Virus record (IMG/VR): IMGVR_UViG_3300018080_000320
Coordinates: 1-39,656 of that record
Origin: a virus
Strand: one strand, 5' to 3'
DNA length: 39,656 nt
The position numbers and the translations under genes were made by a program. Shown piece by piece: positions 15,837-28,401 of the stretch. Each line of letters begins with the position of its first letter. Position 1 is the stretch's first letter. Below the pieces are notes generated by a model, which was given only the letters and a program-made list of their open reading frames with translations, did no database searches and had not been told where the DNA came from.

Positions 15837-16029
15837 GCTTCTCCTCTAATTAATCACTCATATTATTGATGTATCAAATTAATTATGTATTAGGTAAAGG
15901 TCAAGGGAAATTGATATTTTTTTCAGCATAGGATAGCTGAATTGCTATTAAACTACACAAATGTGTAGTGCTATGTTTCACATTATAAAACTTTGGGCAA
16001 AAAAACTCTAATTTCCTCAAACTTTTTTC
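15837..16029. promoter_or_regulatory. Divergent control region between leftward small genes and plus-strand cassette
   Basis: AT-rich, no gene. On the minus strand TTGACC with TAATTT 17 bases on is a weak promoter candidate for the leftward operon. At 15953-15968 there is a perfect palindrome CTACACA-AA-TGTGTAG that could be an operator distinct from the CTATCA type. The plus promoter begins just after this region. Confidence 0.45.
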
Positions 16030-16057
16030 TTGCAATCTATCTATCACATGGTATAAT
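16030..16057 (+). promoter_or_regulatory. Promoter of the plus-strand cassette with operator-like sequence
   Basis: TTGCAA, a 16-base spacer and TATAAT. The spacer contains CTATCTATCACATGG, which matches one half of the CTATCA-N2-TGATAG operator, and a perfect palindrome GATAGAT-TTT-ATCTATC follows at 16070-16086 in the leader. The repressor could block this promoter in the prophage. Confidence 0.7.
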
Positions 16058-16115: not shown

Positions 16116-16436
16116 ATGACAGAACTAAAAGACAAGGTGACGTTCTACATACCATCGGAGTCAAACGGACAGTCAATCAACAATTCTGCAGTGCTTCACA
16201 TGATAGCTAAAAGACTTTCCAAACGGTTCGGCGGTTGCACTGTCACTGATGGTATCGGCTATTGGGTTAATGGATCGGGTGAACTTGTTTGCGAACCTGT
16301 CAAGCTTGTCTACTGCTATGGGGATTTTTCAAACGGTTTATCTAATCTGTTTTTCTTATTGGCTACATATATAAAGCAATCATTACGTCAAGAGTCTGTA
16401 GCCTACGAAATCAATAACAAGCTTGTACTTGTGTAG
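16116..16436 (+). CDS. Uncharacterised phage protein, first gene of the plus-strand cassette
   Basis: 106 residues from the ATG eight bases after GGAGG. An alpha-beta protein with KRFGGCTVTDGIGYWVNGSG and EPVKLVYCYGDFS near the centre. The 'FGG-C-T-V ... G-x-GYW' pattern recurs in small phage and plasmid proteins without known function. No catalytic motif. It is the promoter-proximal gene of an operon transcribed against its neighbours, so probably made early after derepression. Confidence 0.65.
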   Translation: MTELKDKVTFYIPSESNGQSINNSAVLHMIAKRLSKRFGGCTVTDGIGYWVNGSGELVCEPVKLVYCYGDFSNGLSNLFFLLATYIKQSLRQESVAYEINNKLVLV

Positions 16437-16446
16437 GGAGGATTCT

Positions 16447-16629
16447 ATGAAAAGGAATCTGTCAGCAAAGGATATGAAGATTGTCGGAACATTCCGAGGA
16501 TCTGATCCGATCTGTGAAGATTGCGTGATTAACAACGGAATGAGGTATCTGGACAGTCCTATTTTCCACCGTTGTGCTCGTGAATATAAGCTTATTTGCG
16601 ATGCTTGCGGAGAAGCACTTGCCAAGTAA
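16447..16629 (+). CDS. Small zinc-binding protein of the cassette, 60 aa
   Basis: ATG after GGGAGGATTCT. Cys23/Cys26 (PICEDC) and Cys51/Cys54 (ICDACG) form a likely zinc site with an additional Cys43. Basic and compact. Unknown function. Confidence 0.65.
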   Translation: MKRNLSAKDMKIVGTFRGSDPICEDCVINNGMRYLDSPIFHRCAREYKLICDACGEALAK

Positions 16630-16717
16630 GTGCATCGATTGCCGGATCGGTCAAACGGTCCGGTGGTATCGACAACGTTGTTGTCAGGGCGATTAAGAAT
16701 CGGACGGAGGAATCACT

Positions 16718-16996
16718 ATGAATCGGACGATTGCACAACATGCTCTTGATGCACTGAAAGTACAAGACGCATGTAACCTGTCGGGTGTCGTTCACTCACT
16801 CGACACGGTAGTAACCGATCTGTGGGAAGAAGCAAATCGGATCGGGCAGGGTACGGATTGGGTAAATACTCACCCAATTGTCAAGGCATACGTCGACAAG
16901 CTTGCATCGCTTGCAGGAGTACAGGTAGCTGTCAACCACTACGAGACTGTACTCGAAGCATTTGATGAATGTGAAAAGCTTGCTCGTATGGAATAG
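16718..16996 (+). CDS. Uncharacterised helical protein of the cassette, 92 aa
   Basis: ATG after GGAGGAATCACT. The protein MNRTIAQHALDALKVQDACN continues as an all-helical chain with many acidic residues (DLWEEANRIGQG). Its first four codons are themselves a copy of the cassette repeat. It ends GAATAG, which forms the next copy. A 'WEEANRIGQGTDWVNTHPI' segment recurs in phage small proteins; function unknown. Confidence 0.65.
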   Translation: MNRTIAQHALDALKVQDACNLSGVVHSLDTVVTDLWEEANRIGQGTDWVNTHPIVKAYVDKLASLAGVQVAVNHYETVLEAFDECEKLARME

Positions 16997-17010
16997 GACG
17001 GGAGGAAAAC

Positions 17011-17769
17011 ATGGGCACATCAAGAAAAGACAGACGCATAGGTGATTTGATGAGCAATACATCCTACACGTCTGCCAAGAAAATTGGACACAGTAGAGTA
17101 TTATGGACAGGCCAAAATGTCAACGGAGAACCAATCACAGCTATCCGGTACCATGATACTGACATAGCCGTACAAAAAGACGGTTTGCTCTGGCTAACAT
17201 CGGGGGGATGGCGAACCGCTACCACTAAGCTGAACATCAATAGAGCATTAGATTATTTTAACTATCCAGGTTTTATACATCAGAACCGCTCTATATGGTA
17301 TTACGATTCGCGGCTTAAAGGTATAGATCCATACATCTTTTTTGACGGCATGATAATCGATCATGCCGGAAACATTCGCAATCCCTCATTAGGAACAAGC
17401 GAACAAGAAAGAATCCAGAAAACTGTCAAACAAATTAACAACTATTGCCGAGTATTGCGCGAACAAATCAGAAGAGATGGTAGGGTGCCAAGGCCCACTA
17501 ACGGTGATTGTTGGGGTTGTCTGCTACGGACAGAATCGGGCAGTACCATGGGAGATGTGTTTGGTGACACAGAACACCTTGTCCTGCATCTAAAAGAAAA
17601 ATACATCCATGGATCGCTAATATTAAATGCCTTAGAACATGCTGGATATAAATATCCGGCCTTAATTGCCGGATGGTTTATAGATGGTAGCGATCACTGT
17701 GTGGATGACGATTCTGTGATACGTGCCGTTAGACGTTACCTGAAAGACAAATTGCACATCGGAAGATAG
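17011..17769 (+). CDS. Uncharacterised 252-aa protein of the cassette
   Basis: ATG after GGGAGGAAAAC. The first 100 residues have the layout 'HDTDIAVQKDGLLWLTSGGW, TATTKLNINR, SIWYYD' followed by IFFDGMIIDHAG, a family seen in environmental phages with no function assigned. The C-terminal half has a HLVLHLKEKYIHGSL and a Cys/His-containing segment GDCWGCLL. No membrane segment. It is the largest gene of the cassette and precedes a structured leader. Confidence 0.65.
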   Translation: MGTSRKDRRIGDLMSNTSYTSAKKIGHSRVLWTGQNVNGEPITAIRYHDTDIAVQKDGLLWLTSGGWRTATTKLNINRALDYFNYPGFIHQNRSIWYYDSRLKGIDPYIFFDGMIIDHAGNIRNPSLGTSEQERIQKTVKQINNYCRVLREQIRRDGRVPRPTNGDCWGCLLRTESGSTMGDVFGDTEHLVLHLKEKYIHGSLILNALEHAGYKYPALIAGWFIDGSDHCVDDDSVIRAVRRYLKDKLHIGR

Positions 17770-17774
17770 CACGG

Positions 17775-17841
17775 TAGGGCACGGTCTACAGAGCGCTCAT
17801 CCAATCGGGTGTAGGTCGGAGTGCAAGACTCCGGTGCCCTA
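17775..17841 (+). ncRNA. Candidate structured RNA with three-way junction
   Basis: An 8-bp closing stem TAGGGCAC/GTGCCCTA encloses two hairpins: GGTCTACA with TGTAGGTC (two G-U pairs) and CGGAGT-GCAAG-ACTCCG. Wobble pairs work only on the plus strand, so a plus-strand RNA is favoured. It resembles a tRNA in closing stem and last hairpin, but it is about 65 bases and lacks a D arm and an anticodon loop. It lies in the gap before the 185-aa gene. Confidence 0.5.
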
Positions 17842-17842
17842 T

Positions 17843-17889
17843 AGGTGCGTTGCACCTCAATATCTTAACAGTCCGATTAGGAATCGGAC
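17843..17889 (+). promoter_or_regulatory. Two leader hairpins before the 185-aa gene
   Basis: AGGTGC-GTT-GCACCT (17843-17857) and GTCCGATT-AGG-AATCGGAC (17871-17889), both perfect. The second contains a copy of the cassette repeat and ends next to the ribosome site, so it could gate translation of the following gene. Confidence 0.55.
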
Positions 17890-17902
17890 GAAGGAGAGGA
17901 TA

Positions 17903-18460
17903 ATGAAAAGACTCATTATCTCCCAGGATGATTGTCCTGAATCTCCCAGAGAATGGGACAATCTCGGTACGATGGTATGCTTTCACCGACACTACGATCT
18001 CGGCGACAAGCATGAGTTCTCCGATCCCCAGGACTTTCTTGACTACCTGGAATCGGACGATCCGATCAGACTCCCGCTTTATTTGTTGGATCATAGTGGC
18101 CTCTGGATGCGAACCGGACAGTTCATGGAAGATCCCCAAGGGTGGGATACGTCGATGGTAGGATTTATCTACGTCACCCGCGAAAAGGTCCAGCAAGAAT
18201 ACGGGTGGAAAAGATTGACTCAGAAACGGATCAAACAGATTCAACAACACCTGGAATCGGAAGTTGCCACCTACTCACAATACCTGGAAGGTGACGTTTG
18301 GGGATTTTCGCTGATCGAAGAAACCAAGTGCTGTCAGTGCCACCAAACAATCACGGATATTCTTGATTCCTGTTGGGGATTCTACGGCCATAACCCCAAG
18401 ACAAACGGTATGGCCGATCACATCCCCGACCTGGATCAATACGAAATCGTCTACGAATAG
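17903..18460 (+). CDS. Conserved phage/plasmid protein with PREWDNLGTM motif
   Basis: 185 residues from the ATG after GAAGGAGAGGATA. The start SQDDCPESPREWDNLGTMVC, followed by FHRHYDLGD, is a widely distributed but uncharacterised family of phages and mobile elements. Residues about 78-95 (LYLLDHSGLWMRTGQF) and 109-120 (MVGFIYVTREK) complete the typical layout. The C-terminus has a CCQCHQ cluster. It ends in GAATAG that feeds the next ribosome site. Confidence 0.75.
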   Translation: MKRLIISQDDCPESPREWDNLGTMVCFHRHYDLGDKHEFSDPQDFLDYLESDDPIRLPLYLLDHSGLWMRTGQFMEDPQGWDTSMVGFIYVTREKVQQEYGWKRLTQKRIKQIQQHLESEVATYSQYLEGDVWGFSLIEETKCCQCHQTITDILDSCWGFYGHNPKTNGMADHIPDLDQYEIVYE

Positions 18461-18473
18461 GACGGAGGAACCC

Positions 18474-18641
18474 GTGGAAAAGGTACGAATCGTGGTGAAA
18501 CACGGAATTGTCACGGACGTTAAAACAGACGTGCCTATGACAATTCAACTCATCGATCAGGGGCAGGAGGGGTTGAGAGGCTATCGTTGGGTATCGATCC
18601 CTGAAAACCTGCAAAGACTTCCCCGGCGATATTGGAGGTAA
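18474..18641 (+). CDS. Uncharacterised 55-aa protein of the cassette
   Basis: GTG start after GGAGGAACCC. MEKVRIVVKHGIVTDVKTDV reads as a beta hairpin, followed by MTIQLIDQGQEGLRGYRWV. The stop includes the ribosome site of the next gene. Short, basic end (RRYWR). Coding is supported by spacing and ribosome site. Confidence 0.6.
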   Translation: MEKVRIVVKHGIVTDVKTDVPMTIQLIDQGQEGLRGYRWVSIPENLQRLPRRYWR

Positions 18642-18642
18642 C

Positions 18643-18879
18643 ATGGCAAAGGAAGGTTTTTTGCATGATGCGTTTGTCAAGTTCGACAAGAAAAGCAACA
18701 AGCTTATCAAACGGTGTCGAGTATGTAGAACCGATCTTGCAAAAGCCGAATTGATCCGTGCTTGGGAATCGGACGGAAGAAAGAACTTTATCTACGCCTG
18801 CCCAAAGTGCGGACGGTTCAACTTGTTTTTCAGGAAGCGGAGCTATGGACGTGACGTATCAAATCGCATGGTGGGATAA
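18643..18879 (+). CDS. Zinc-ribbon protein of the cassette, 78 aa
   Basis: ATG after GGAGGTAAC. Cys25/Cys28 (KRCRVCRT) and Cys53/Cys56 (YACPKCGRF) form a zinc ribbon; the protein is strongly basic (RKRSYGRD), suggesting nucleic-acid contact. Its last 35 bases overlap the next gene. A copy of the cassette repeat lies within it. Confidence 0.65.
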   Translation: MAKEGFLHDAFVKFDKKSNKLIKRCRVCRTDLAKAELIRAWESDGRKNFIYACPKCGRFNLFFRKRSYGRDVSNRMVG

Positions 18880-19045
18880 AAAGGTACAGTCCCCGGATCG
18901 GGCAGGCTGGAAGTTTATGCCCTCAGAAATCCATAAAACCAAACACCGAGGAATCGAGCGCCTGCACTCCTTGCGGAAACTGTACCCTGGTATCACATTC
19001 TCCCTGCAAAAAATATCCAGGGAGATTTTAGCACAGGTACAGTAG
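18845..19045 (+). CDS. Uncharacterised 66-aa protein, last gene of the cassette
   Basis: ATG after CGGAGCT. Begins MDVTYQIAWWDKKVQSPDRA; the central part (GIERLHSLRKLYPGITFSL) is helical and basic. It overlaps the zinc-ribbon gene and is followed by a terminator. No domain recognised. Confidence 0.55.
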   Translation: MDVTYQIAWWDKKVQSPDRAGWKFMPSEIHKTKHRGIERLHSLRKLYPGITFSLQKISREILAQVQ

Positions 19046-19084
19046 TAAGACAATTGCACGATAACATCGAGAATGTTACTATGC

Positions 19085-19112
19085 AAAGGGACAGTCAACC
19101 AGCTGTCCCTTT
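19085..19112 (+). terminator. Rho-independent terminator of the plus-strand cassette
   Basis: A 10-bp stem AAAGGGACAG / CTGTCCCTTT with an 8-base loop, then TTATTTG on the plus strand. It stands 40 bases after the last stop of the cassette. Confidence 0.85.
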
Positions 19113-19155
19113 TTATTTGTCAAAAATTGGATGCTGTCAAATCGTCATTCAGAAT

Positions 19156-19235
19156 AGGACGGCTGCCCTCTTACTCGTTTACCCTTCGGTAGCGCTTTGC
19201 CACCCCGCTCACACAACCTGGAAAGCAGCCGCCCT
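19156..19235 (-). ncRNA. Candidate minus-strand structured RNA flanked by cassette repeats
   Basis: On the minus strand AGGGCGGCTGC pairs with GCAGCCGTCCT (11 bp with one G-U), enclosing GGTGGC-AAAGC-GCTACC (6 bp with one G-U). The wobble pairs would be mismatches on the plus strand, which favours a minus-strand transcript, perhaps the 3' end of the leftward early operon. Copies of GAAT(C/A)GGACG lie at 19152 and 19239, at each end. The rest of 19046-19291 is AT-rich and shows no gene. Confidence 0.45.
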
Positions 19236-19291
19236 GATGAATCGGACGATAAAAAAAATTACTATGTGCTAATTAATATATCAAAAATATA

Positions 19292-27707: not shown

Positions 27708-27782
27708 TTGGCCCGGATGGATTTGAACCACCGATCTTTCGGATATCAGCCGACTGCTCTACCCTGGCTGAGCTACGGGCCA
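27708..27782 (-). tRNA. tRNA-Ile (anticodon GAT)
   Basis: Acceptor stem TGGCCCG/CGGGCCA (7 bp), D arm GCTC...GAGC, anticodon stem GTCGG/CCGAA with loop CTGATAT, T arm GGTGG-TTCAAAT-CCATC. One mismatch (27-43) in the anticodon stem. No CCA is encoded. It reads on the same strand as the integrase. Confidence 0.85.
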
Positions 27783-27792
27783 TTTATTAAAA

Positions 27793-27866
27793 GGTACAAA
27801 TCGGGTACAAAATGTTCAAGAGAAACTACCTAATATTTTCTGATTTTTTAATTCGTTGTTAGGTAG
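27793..27866. repeat. Direct and inverted repeats on the integrase side of the att core
   Basis: Two direct copies of GGTACAAA at 27793 and 27804, and an inverted repeat CTACCTAA...TTAGGTAG at 27826-27833 and 27859-27866. Such repeats beside an att core are plausible integrase arm sites, but this is inference. Confidence 0.45.
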
Positions 27867-27876
27867 GAAATAAAAA

Positions 27877-27918
27877 AGCGAGCGAGGGGAATCGAACCCC
27901 CGTCACGAGCTTGGGAAG
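27877..27918 (-). other. Probable attP core: 3' end of a tRNA-Gly(TCC) gene
   Basis: On the minus strand: anticodon loop CTTCCCA, stem AGCTC, T arm GGGGG-TTCGATT-CCCCT and acceptor CGCTCGC, in exact tRNA order. No matching 5' half (GCGAGCG, D arm) precedes it. A 3' tRNA fragment near a tyrosine integrase gene is the classic form of attP, which restores the host tRNA on integration. Confidence 0.72.
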
Positions 27919-27934
27919 CGGCTGTTCAATCAGG

Positions 27935-28041
27935 CGATAGTTGCGATCTATCGATATTTTTAGATTTGCGTTGCAGGAAGGTGAGGCAAGGGCTTTAGAC
28001 TATCACCGTGCATTTTAGATTCTATTATACGATAGTTGCGA
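27935..28041 (-). repeat. Repeated TTGCG-type sites flanking the att core
   Basis: A perfect 12-base direct repeat CGATAGTTGCGA occurs at 27935-27946 and 28030-28041, with additional TTGCG copies near 27966 and 28047. Regular short repeats on the side of the core away from the integrase gene are typical of integrase or accessory-protein arm sites. Confidence 0.5.
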
Positions 28042-28077
28042 ATTGTTGCGTTGAGTTTTGGGGTGCAAATTAGGTAC

Positions 28078-28149
28078 AGCCCGCGCAGGGATTCGAACCC
28101 TGACCCTAAGCTTGGAAGGCTCTCATGCTGCCGTTCACACCACACGGGC
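28078..28149 (-). tRNA. tRNA-Gly (anticodon TCC)
   Basis: Acceptor GCCCGTG/CGCGGGC (one wobble), T arm CAGGG-TTCGAAT-CCCTG, anticodon loop CTTCCAA with stem AGAGC/GCTTA (one mismatch, one wobble). D arm GTGT/GCAT has two wobbles. Full length of 72 bases. The anticodon is the same as that of the attP fragment nearby. Confidence 0.75.
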
Positions 28150-28152
28150 AAG

Positions 28153-28226
28153 AGGGGGATTCTCGAACCTTCAAGGCTCCCGGGCCATGTTCCCGGGGCA
28201 GTTATCCCTATCCCGGTCAATCCCCC
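28153..28226 (-). tRNA. Degenerate tRNA-like sequence (possible tRNA pseudogene)
   Basis: The acceptor GGGGGAT/ATCCCCC is perfect and CCGGG-AACATGG-CCCGG makes a stem with CAT in the anticodon place, but U33 is replaced by A, the loop lies three bases too far from the 5' end, and the T loop (GGTTCGAGAATCC) carries extra bases. The D arm does not pair. Reads as a decayed or unusual tRNA, possibly Met. It lies in register between two good tRNAs. Confidence 0.35.
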
Positions 28227-28253
28227 GACACGGTTGGCTGGCCGTGCCAACGT

Positions 28254-28324
28254 AGCCCCCGGGAGGAATCGAACCTCCGTACCGCTGATTTGCAGTCAGC
28301 GGGCTACCCATTTGCTTCGGAGGC
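28254..28324 (-). tRNA. tRNA-Cys (anticodon GCA)
   Basis: Acceptor GCCTCCG/CGGGGGC (one wobble), anticodon stem GCTGA/TCAGC with loop CTGCAAA, T arm GGAGG-TTCGATT-CCTCC. The short D arm is typical for Cys. It begins six bases downstream of tRNA-His. Confidence 0.85.
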
Positions 28325-28329
28325 AAGAG

Positions 28330-28401
28330 GGTAACTGACTGGACTCGAACCAGCATCACCTGATTCACAGTCAGGTCGCTTGCCCTTAGCGTACAGCTAC
28401 C
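28330..28401 (-). tRNA. tRNA-His (anticodon GTG)
   Basis: Eight-base-pair acceptor GGTAGCTG/CAGTTACC, including the extra G opposite C73 that marks tRNA-His. D arm CGCT/AGCG, anticodon stem CCTGA/TCAGG with loop CTGTGAA, T arm GCTGG-TTCGAGT-CCAGT. Confidence 0.88.

What the first reader, a model, noticed from the sequence alone, without database searches (positions are those of the whole stretch)
16116..19248. Isolated plus-strand cassette tagged by nine copies of GAAT(C/A)GGACG
Eight small uncharacterised genes run against all neighbours with their own promoter and terminator. Nine copies of a 10-bp motif lie in the span, all in one orientation, four fused to ribosome sites and two flanking an RNA-like element. 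The motif may mark a translation control system, for example a protein or small RNA acting on several messages of one operon. It could be an undescribed accessory or anti-defence module expressed on induction.
Basis: partly seen in the sequence, partly recalled or inferred. Interest (0 to 1): 0.78.

Follow-up and report, generated by a model that had tools for sequence, protein, structure and literature searches.

The report
Phage gene-start repeats with antisense RNA
A small block of phage genes repeats one 10-base tag just before several of its gene starts, and right behind the block, on the other strand, lies a conserved folded RNA gene whose two ends are the exact complement of both versions of that tag, so the phage probably uses one small RNA to control several of these genes at once.

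Summary
In detail: nine exact GAAT(C/A)GGACG, all + strand, none elsewhere in the 39.7-kb phage record (0.23 expected). Four end 9-12 nt before start codons, abutting the Shine-Dalgarno. A relative (L011, 77% terminase identity) keeps a homologous cassette with eight copies in one orientation, three exactly 12 nt before starts of partly different genes. The last two window copies (19152, 19239) differ in kind. They lie beyond the cassette's terminator and form the ends of a conserved ~100-nt RNA encoded on the MINUS strand (20/20 pairs in both phages, 16/15 if read on +; MFE -44/-42 versus -27/-26). It carries CGUCCGAUUC (5' arm) and CGUCCUAUUC (3' arm), one for each motif variant, and has seven >=10-nt exact complements in the cassette mRNA against 0.14 expected. 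Best reading: a phage antisense RNA controlling translation of several cistrons through start-associated sites, working like P1 c4 RNA on SAS-like sites. Some genes also carry a covarying two-hairpin leader. Against: no expression data, only two genomes, and net pairing energy in the window clearly favours only ORF3. Gene functions stay unknown; nothing supports anti-defence.

The parts
16030..16057 (+). promoter-like site of the cassette (TTGCAA-16-TATAAT, TG before -10)
   Evidence: consensus match only
16116..16436 (+). ORF1, 106 aa (phrog_31027 / phrog_3543, unknown function); no motif at its start
16447..16629 (+). ORF2, 60 aa, Cys-rich, no family
16636..16720 (+). two-hairpin leader of ORF3, ending in motif, SD and ATG
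16697..16706 (+). motif copy (C variant), 11 nt before the ORF3 start
16718..16731 (+). ATGAATCGGACGAT: motif copy 16720 at the ORF3 start codon; 14 nt exactly complementary to the 5' arm of the minus-strand RNA
16718..16996 (+). ORF3, 92 aa, 70% identical homologue in L011, no family at significant E-value
16991..17000 (+). motif copy (A variant), contains the ORF3 stop, 10 nt before the ORF4 start
17011..17769 (+). ORF4, 252 aa, part matches phrog_554 (unknown function)
17774..17902 (+). structured leader of ORF5 (cloverleaf-like fold, small hairpin, motif hairpin); not a tRNA
17881..17890 (+). motif copy (C variant), 12 nt before the ORF5 start, 3' side of a cis hairpin GTCCGATT-AGG-AATCGGAC
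17903..18460 (+). ORF5, 185 aa, widespread phage family phrog_6186, unknown function
18050..18059 (+). motif copy inside ORF5
18455..18464 (+). motif copy (A variant), contains the ORF5 stop, 9 nt before the ORF6 start
18474..18641 (+). ORF6, 55 aa, GTG start
18643..18879 (+). ORF7, 78 aa, zinc-ribbon-like, 63% identical homologue in L011
18766..18775 (+). motif copy inside ORF7 (codons for ESD), kept at the same place in L011
18845..19045 (+). ORF8, 66 aa
19085..19112 (+). intrinsic terminator of the cassette
19150..19250 (-). conserved structured ncRNA, proposed antisense RNA
19237..19250 (-). 5' arm AUCGUCCGAUUCAU, complement of the C variant of the motif
19152..19163 (-). 3' arm GCCGUCCUAUUC, complement of the A variant of the motif
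19256..19284 (-). weak promoter-like site TTGATA-17-TAATTT just upstream of the RNA (8 of 12); not matched at the same place in L011

Best explanation
The cassette is an operon of small phage accessory genes in which four translation starts carry a shared 10-nt site, GAAU(C/A)GGACG, placed directly 5' of the Shine-Dalgarno sequence. Just past the operon's terminator the phage encodes, on the opposite strand, a ~100-nt structured RNA whose 5' and 3' arms are the exact complements of the C and the A variant of that site. I propose that when this RNA is made (from its own weak promoter or by read-through of the minus-strand replication operon that ends there), its arms pair with the sites in front of ORF3, ORF4, ORF5 and ORF6 and block ribosome loading (or expose the duplex to RNase III), so that several cistrons of the convergent operon are switched off together. 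Some starts add a two-hairpin leader that may insulate the cistron or present the site. Shown: motif, positions, conservation, RNA structure and strand, complementarity beyond chance. Inferred: transcription of the RNA, pairing in the cell, repression rather than activation, and timing.
For: Motif: 9 copies against 0.23 expected, confined to the cassette; copies end 9-12 nt before 4 starts here and exactly 12 nt before 3 starts in L011, partly before different genes. RNA: minus-strand fold -44.1 (window) and -42.1 (L011) versus -26.9 and -25.9 for the + strand; 20 of 20 consensus pairs on minus in both phages, 16 and 15 on +; 9 of 20 pairs differ between the phages and all stay paired, 3 changed on both sides; the element has a 1-nt indel between phages, against a coding role. 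Arms: both ends invariant between the phages while the stem between them diverges, and the one variable motif position (C or A) is the position where the two arms differ (G or U). Complementarity: 7 sites of >=10 nt in the 3.06-kb cassette mRNA (0.14 for shuffled RNA, maximum 2) and 5 in L011 (0.12), against 4 sites in the remaining ~76 kb of both strands. The two arms lie beyond the + terminator (19085-19112), so they are not sites of the operon's own mRNA if that terminator works. Leaders: 12 of 20 pairs changed on both sides in 4 sequences, shuffle mean 4.3.
Against: No expression data. Only two genomes, in which motif and arms are identical in their core, so co-variation of site and arm could not be tested. 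In the window the arms are partly folded within the RNA; net co-folding energy clearly exceeds gene-start controls only for ORF3 (-14 to -18 kcal/mol) and not for ORF4, ORF5 or ORF6. In L011 the site-bearing starts exceed controls only with the longer RNA forms, and ORF8, without a site, also scores high. For two phages the covariation in the ncRNA alone is not significant against shuffles (66 of 500). The minus promoter is weak (8 of 12) and not seen at the same place in L011. ORF1, ORF2, ORF7 and ORF8 have no site at their start; L011 X1 has a decayed copy.
Confidence: 0.5

Rival explanations
1. Start-associated sequence read by the ribosome or by a phage or host protein, like SAS in cluster K mycobacteriophages. 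The motif extends the SD region and marks co-regulated genes; the copies at the ncRNA ends are protein sites or derived copies, not antisense seeds.
For: Position next to the SD, one orientation, stop codons inside the motif and restriction to non-structural genes are all as described for SAS. Net pairing energies for ORF4-ORF6 in the window are weak. Three copies lie inside or at the start of coding sequence.
Against: Does not explain why the two copies past the terminator are the invariant ends of an RNA on the other strand, nor why the two arms carry one complement each for the only two motif variants.
Confidence: 0.32
2. Boundary repeat for gene shuffling: short shared sequences at gene borders let genes be exchanged by the phage's RecE/RecT recombination, and the motif has no regulatory role.
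For: Genes between copies differ between the two phages (ORF4-ORF6 here; X1, X2, X3 in L011), and X3 is flanked by copies at both ends. The phage has RecE and RecT.
Against: 10 bp is short for homologous exchange; the fixed 9-12 nt distance to start codons and the leader covariation point to RNA function. Exchange may be a by-product.
Confidence: 0.1
3. Plain bias: a favoured ribosome-binding context copied by local duplication, with no regulator.
For: Leaders X1 and X2 of L011 are near copies of each other, so local duplication does occur.
Against: Conservation extends well outside the SD; leaders keep loops and motif while both stem strands change; other ribosome sites of the same phage lack the motif.
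Confidence: 0.08

Closest known systems
Start-Associated Sequences (SAS/ESAS) of cluster K mycobacteriophages (Pope et al. 2011, PMC3203893)
   Same: Short asymmetric repeat, many copies in one orientation, just upstream of start codons of small non-structural genes, overlapping the SD region, sometimes holding the upstream stop codon; some starts carry an extra upstream element with inverted repeats.
   Different: Different sequence (GGGATAGGAGCCC versus GAATMGGACG) and unrelated phages. ESAS repeats were judged unlikely to form mRNA hairpins (and were later read as promoters), whereas the leaders here covary as RNA. No antisense RNA has been described for SAS in the papers read.
c4 antisense RNA of phages P1 and P7 (Rfam family C4)
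   Same: Small structured phage RNA with two separate segments complementary to the target mRNA at and upstream of a ribosome-binding site, blocking translation.
   Different: No Rfam C4 match. c4 acts on the ant message with two loops on one target; here each arm fits a different variant of a site repeated before several cistrons, and the RNA gene is convergent with the operon.
sar RNA of P22 and OOP RNA of lambda
   Same: Phage antisense RNAs that lower expression of a phage gene and shift the lysis-lysogeny balance.
   Different: As described they act on a single gene (ant; cII); here one RNA would address many short sites in a neighbouring operon that it does not overlap.

Membership tests
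SAS (cluster K mycobacteriophages) | 13-bp consensus GGGATAGGAGCCC | tested here: not met
   The repeat is GAATMGGACG followed by GGAGG; only GATAGGA/AATAGGA-like resemblance by eye.
SAS (cluster K mycobacteriophages) | repeat within a few nt upstream of start codons, one orientation, non-structural genes | tested here: met
   4 starts at 9-12 nt in the window, 3 at 12 nt in L011, all one orientation, none in structural genes.
SAS (cluster K mycobacteriophages) | ESAS: paired imperfect 17-bp inverted repeats upstream of some copies | tested here: not met
   Instead two hairpins of about 13 and 6-7 bp with changing stems and kept loops.
C4 antisense RNA (Rfam) | match to the Rfam covariance model | tested here: not met
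   No match at E<=1 in the window, nor at E<=10 in 19040-19290.
C4 antisense RNA (Rfam) | two segments complementary to target at or near the ribosome-binding site | tested here: met
   5' and 3' arms, 10-14 nt exact complements directly upstream of the SD or over the start.
C4 antisense RNA (Rfam) | processed from a longer transcript by RNase P | not testable with these tools
   needs RNA mapping
base-pairing phage sRNA (general) | transcribed RNA whose effect depends on complementarity | not testable with these tools
   Only structure, strand and complementarity were tested.

The most novel reading that the evidence does not exclude
Start-associated repeats in phage operons are docking sites for a phage's own antisense RNA: a one-RNA regulon in which every cistron that joins the operon brings the site. 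The same logic might apply to SAS of subcluster K1 mycobacteriophages, where the single reverse-oriented SAS lies in a conserved structured stretch.
Probability: 0.25. Interest if true: 0.85.

Novelty: new variant of a known kind. Interest (0 to 1): 0.6.

Why it matters
The role of start-associated repeats in phages has stayed open since 2011. Here a comparable repeat comes with an adjacent conserved RNA that carries the complement of both repeat variants, which turns the question into a direct test with point mutations. If true, it shows how a phage can switch a whole accessory operon with one small RNA, and how newly gained genes can be plugged into the same control.

Tried and rejected
tRNA or tmRNA at 17774-17843: rejected (ARAGORN and cmscan). 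Known RNA family at 19150-19250: none. Motif plus SD plus ATG pattern in 84,980 genomes: 20 hits, each with one motif copy only, taken as chance; in IMG/VR only L011. Core strand TCTTACTCGTTT(N)ACCCT in IMG/VR: L086 and L087, both without the motif, read as chance. ncRNA model in 398 and leader model in 398 genomes drawn from the phyla of two chance hits: no ncRNA match; four weak leader matches (best E 1e-6 per genome, an AACGGAGG ribosome site, no exact motif); the host is unknown, so this is uninformative. Terminase searches: only L009-L011 in viruses, none in genomes. Leader-model match in L044: inside coding sequence, rejected. ORF5 fold: confident model (pLDDT 92), no PDB match. Pairing of the leader loop GUCAAA with the ncRNA was considered and dropped: a complementary stretch lies only downstream of the 3' arm in the window and has no counterpart in the L011 RNA.

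Full report
What was checked. The motif GAATMGGACG occurs nine times in the window, all on +, between 16697 and 19248, against 0.23 expected. With one mismatch allowed one further copy falls in the cassette (18254) and two elsewhere. The cassette is the one + strand block among minus-strand operons (terminase, portal and capsid at 1-10 kb; Holliday-junction resolvase, replication protein, RecT, RecE and integrase at 19.8-27.3 kb; tail proteins beyond). The record is a virus contig from IMG/VR; the host is unknown and a terminase search of GTDB genomes found no related prophage.

Homologous cassette. A terminase search gave L011, a 16.4-kb contig with 77% terminase identity. Its end carries the cassette, on the strand opposite to terminase as in the window: ORF1, ORF3, ORF7 and ORF8 homologues (70, 70 and 63% identity for the first three) and different genes in the other places (X1, X2, X3). 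It has eight exact motif copies, all in one orientation. Three sit exactly 12 nt before starts (ORF3, X2, X3), one holds the X3 stop codon, one is inside ORF7 at the same place as in the window, and three lie past the operon. So the motif follows gene starts rather than particular genes.

Leaders. Upstream of ORF3 (both phages), X1 and X2 the motif (decayed at X1) is the 3' end of a ~90-nt leader with two hairpins. On the alignment of these four, 12 of 20 pairs change on both sides (shuffle mean 4.3; every slid version at most 3), while the loop GUCAAA and the segment from the AUU to the SD are kept. A covariance model built from them finds weaker relatives at L011 ORF2 and at window ORF5. These are mRNA structures; whether they insulate, are processed or regulate is not known.

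The RNA past the terminator. The copies at 19152 and 19239 flank an element that is conserved in L011. It folds far better as a minus-strand RNA in both phages, with all 20 consensus pairs kept there and four or five broken if read on +. Nine pairs vary and all stay paired; with only two sequences this is not significant against column shuffles on its own. A 1-nt indel between the phages speaks against a coding role. On that strand the two motif copies read CGUCCGAUUC (5' arm) and CGUCCUAUUC (3' arm), the complements of the two motif variants seen in the operon. L011 has a third such segment (252-243) before its own convergent terminator. The arms are the invariant ends of an otherwise diverging element. 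Exact complements of 10 nt or more between the RNA and the cassette mRNA number 7 (window) and 5 (L011), against 0.14 and 0.12 for shuffled RNA; the rest of the window has 4 on both strands together. The longest, 14 nt, covers the ORF3 start codon.

Mechanism. The simplest account is an antisense RNA that blocks translation starts of several cistrons of the convergent operon. The weak point is energetic: the arms are partly folded into the RNA in the window, and co-folding gives a clear net gain only for ORF3 there (-14 to -18 kcal/mol; the others lie within controls), whereas in L011 the site-bearing starts gain more than controls with the longer RNA forms, as does ORF8, which has no site. 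Pairing may need a chaperone, processing or co-transcriptional timing; that is inference. A protein-read start element remains a serious rival.

Known relatives. In kind, the sites are like the SAS of cluster K mycobacteriophages, and the RNA would work like P1 c4 RNA, but neither membership test is met (SAS consensus; C4 Rfam model). In the papers reached I found no description of a start-associated repeat paired with its own antisense RNA; the library is incomplete, so priority is not claimed.

A lead outside the window. Pope et al. note a single reverse SAS in four K1 genomes, not at a start. In the eight phages of that group read here in which it was found, it lies in a conserved stretch near the right end, as 12 or 11 of 13 bases of the anti-SAS between GC-rich arms. 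Other subclusters keep a C-rich segment there but not the anti-SAS, so there is no co-variation and it is only a lead.

Noticed in passing
L088:34683-35067 (Anaya 59682-60066); same stretch in L089, L090, L091, L092, L094, L095, L098: Conserved, strongly folded stretch near the right end of cluster K mycobacteriophages (177 phage records match, often called a hypothetical gene) that contains the single reverse-oriented SAS (GGCCTCCTATCCC) between GCGCGG and CCGCGC arms; other subclusters have a C-rich segment there. Possible anti-SAS RNA.
   Followed up: partly
17903-18460: ORF5 family (phrog_6186): 48 IMG/VR relatives and phages of very different hosts (Moorella, Bacillus, Caulobacter, Sphingobium, Ruegeria), often near genome ends; confident predicted fold (pLDDT 92) with no PDB match; function unknown.
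   Followed up: partly
17774-17850; L011 2405-2340 (reverse strand): Leaders of window ORF5 and L011 ORF2 hold hairpins resembling a tRNA T arm (GGAGTGCAAGACTCC; GGTTCAACTCC) followed by a small triloop hairpin; the window one folds at z -2.9 but is not a tRNA by ARAGORN or Rfam.
   Followed up: partly
15952-15969: Palindrome ACTACACAAATGTGTAGT in the divergent promoter region between the cassette and the leftward operon; operator-like.
   Followed up: no
L036, L025, L029, L020: Other phage loci with ORF5 relatives carry their own strongly repeated 10-mers, e.g. GTCGATCGGACA (17 copies, L036), AAGCTGTGAG (31, L025), AGCTTTATAT (19, L029), AACTAGACAAAATC-type (7, L020); nature unknown.
   Followed up: no
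27708-28400: Four minus-strand tRNA genes (Ile-GAT, Gly-TCC, Cys-GCA, His-GTG) next to the integrase gene.
   Followed up: no
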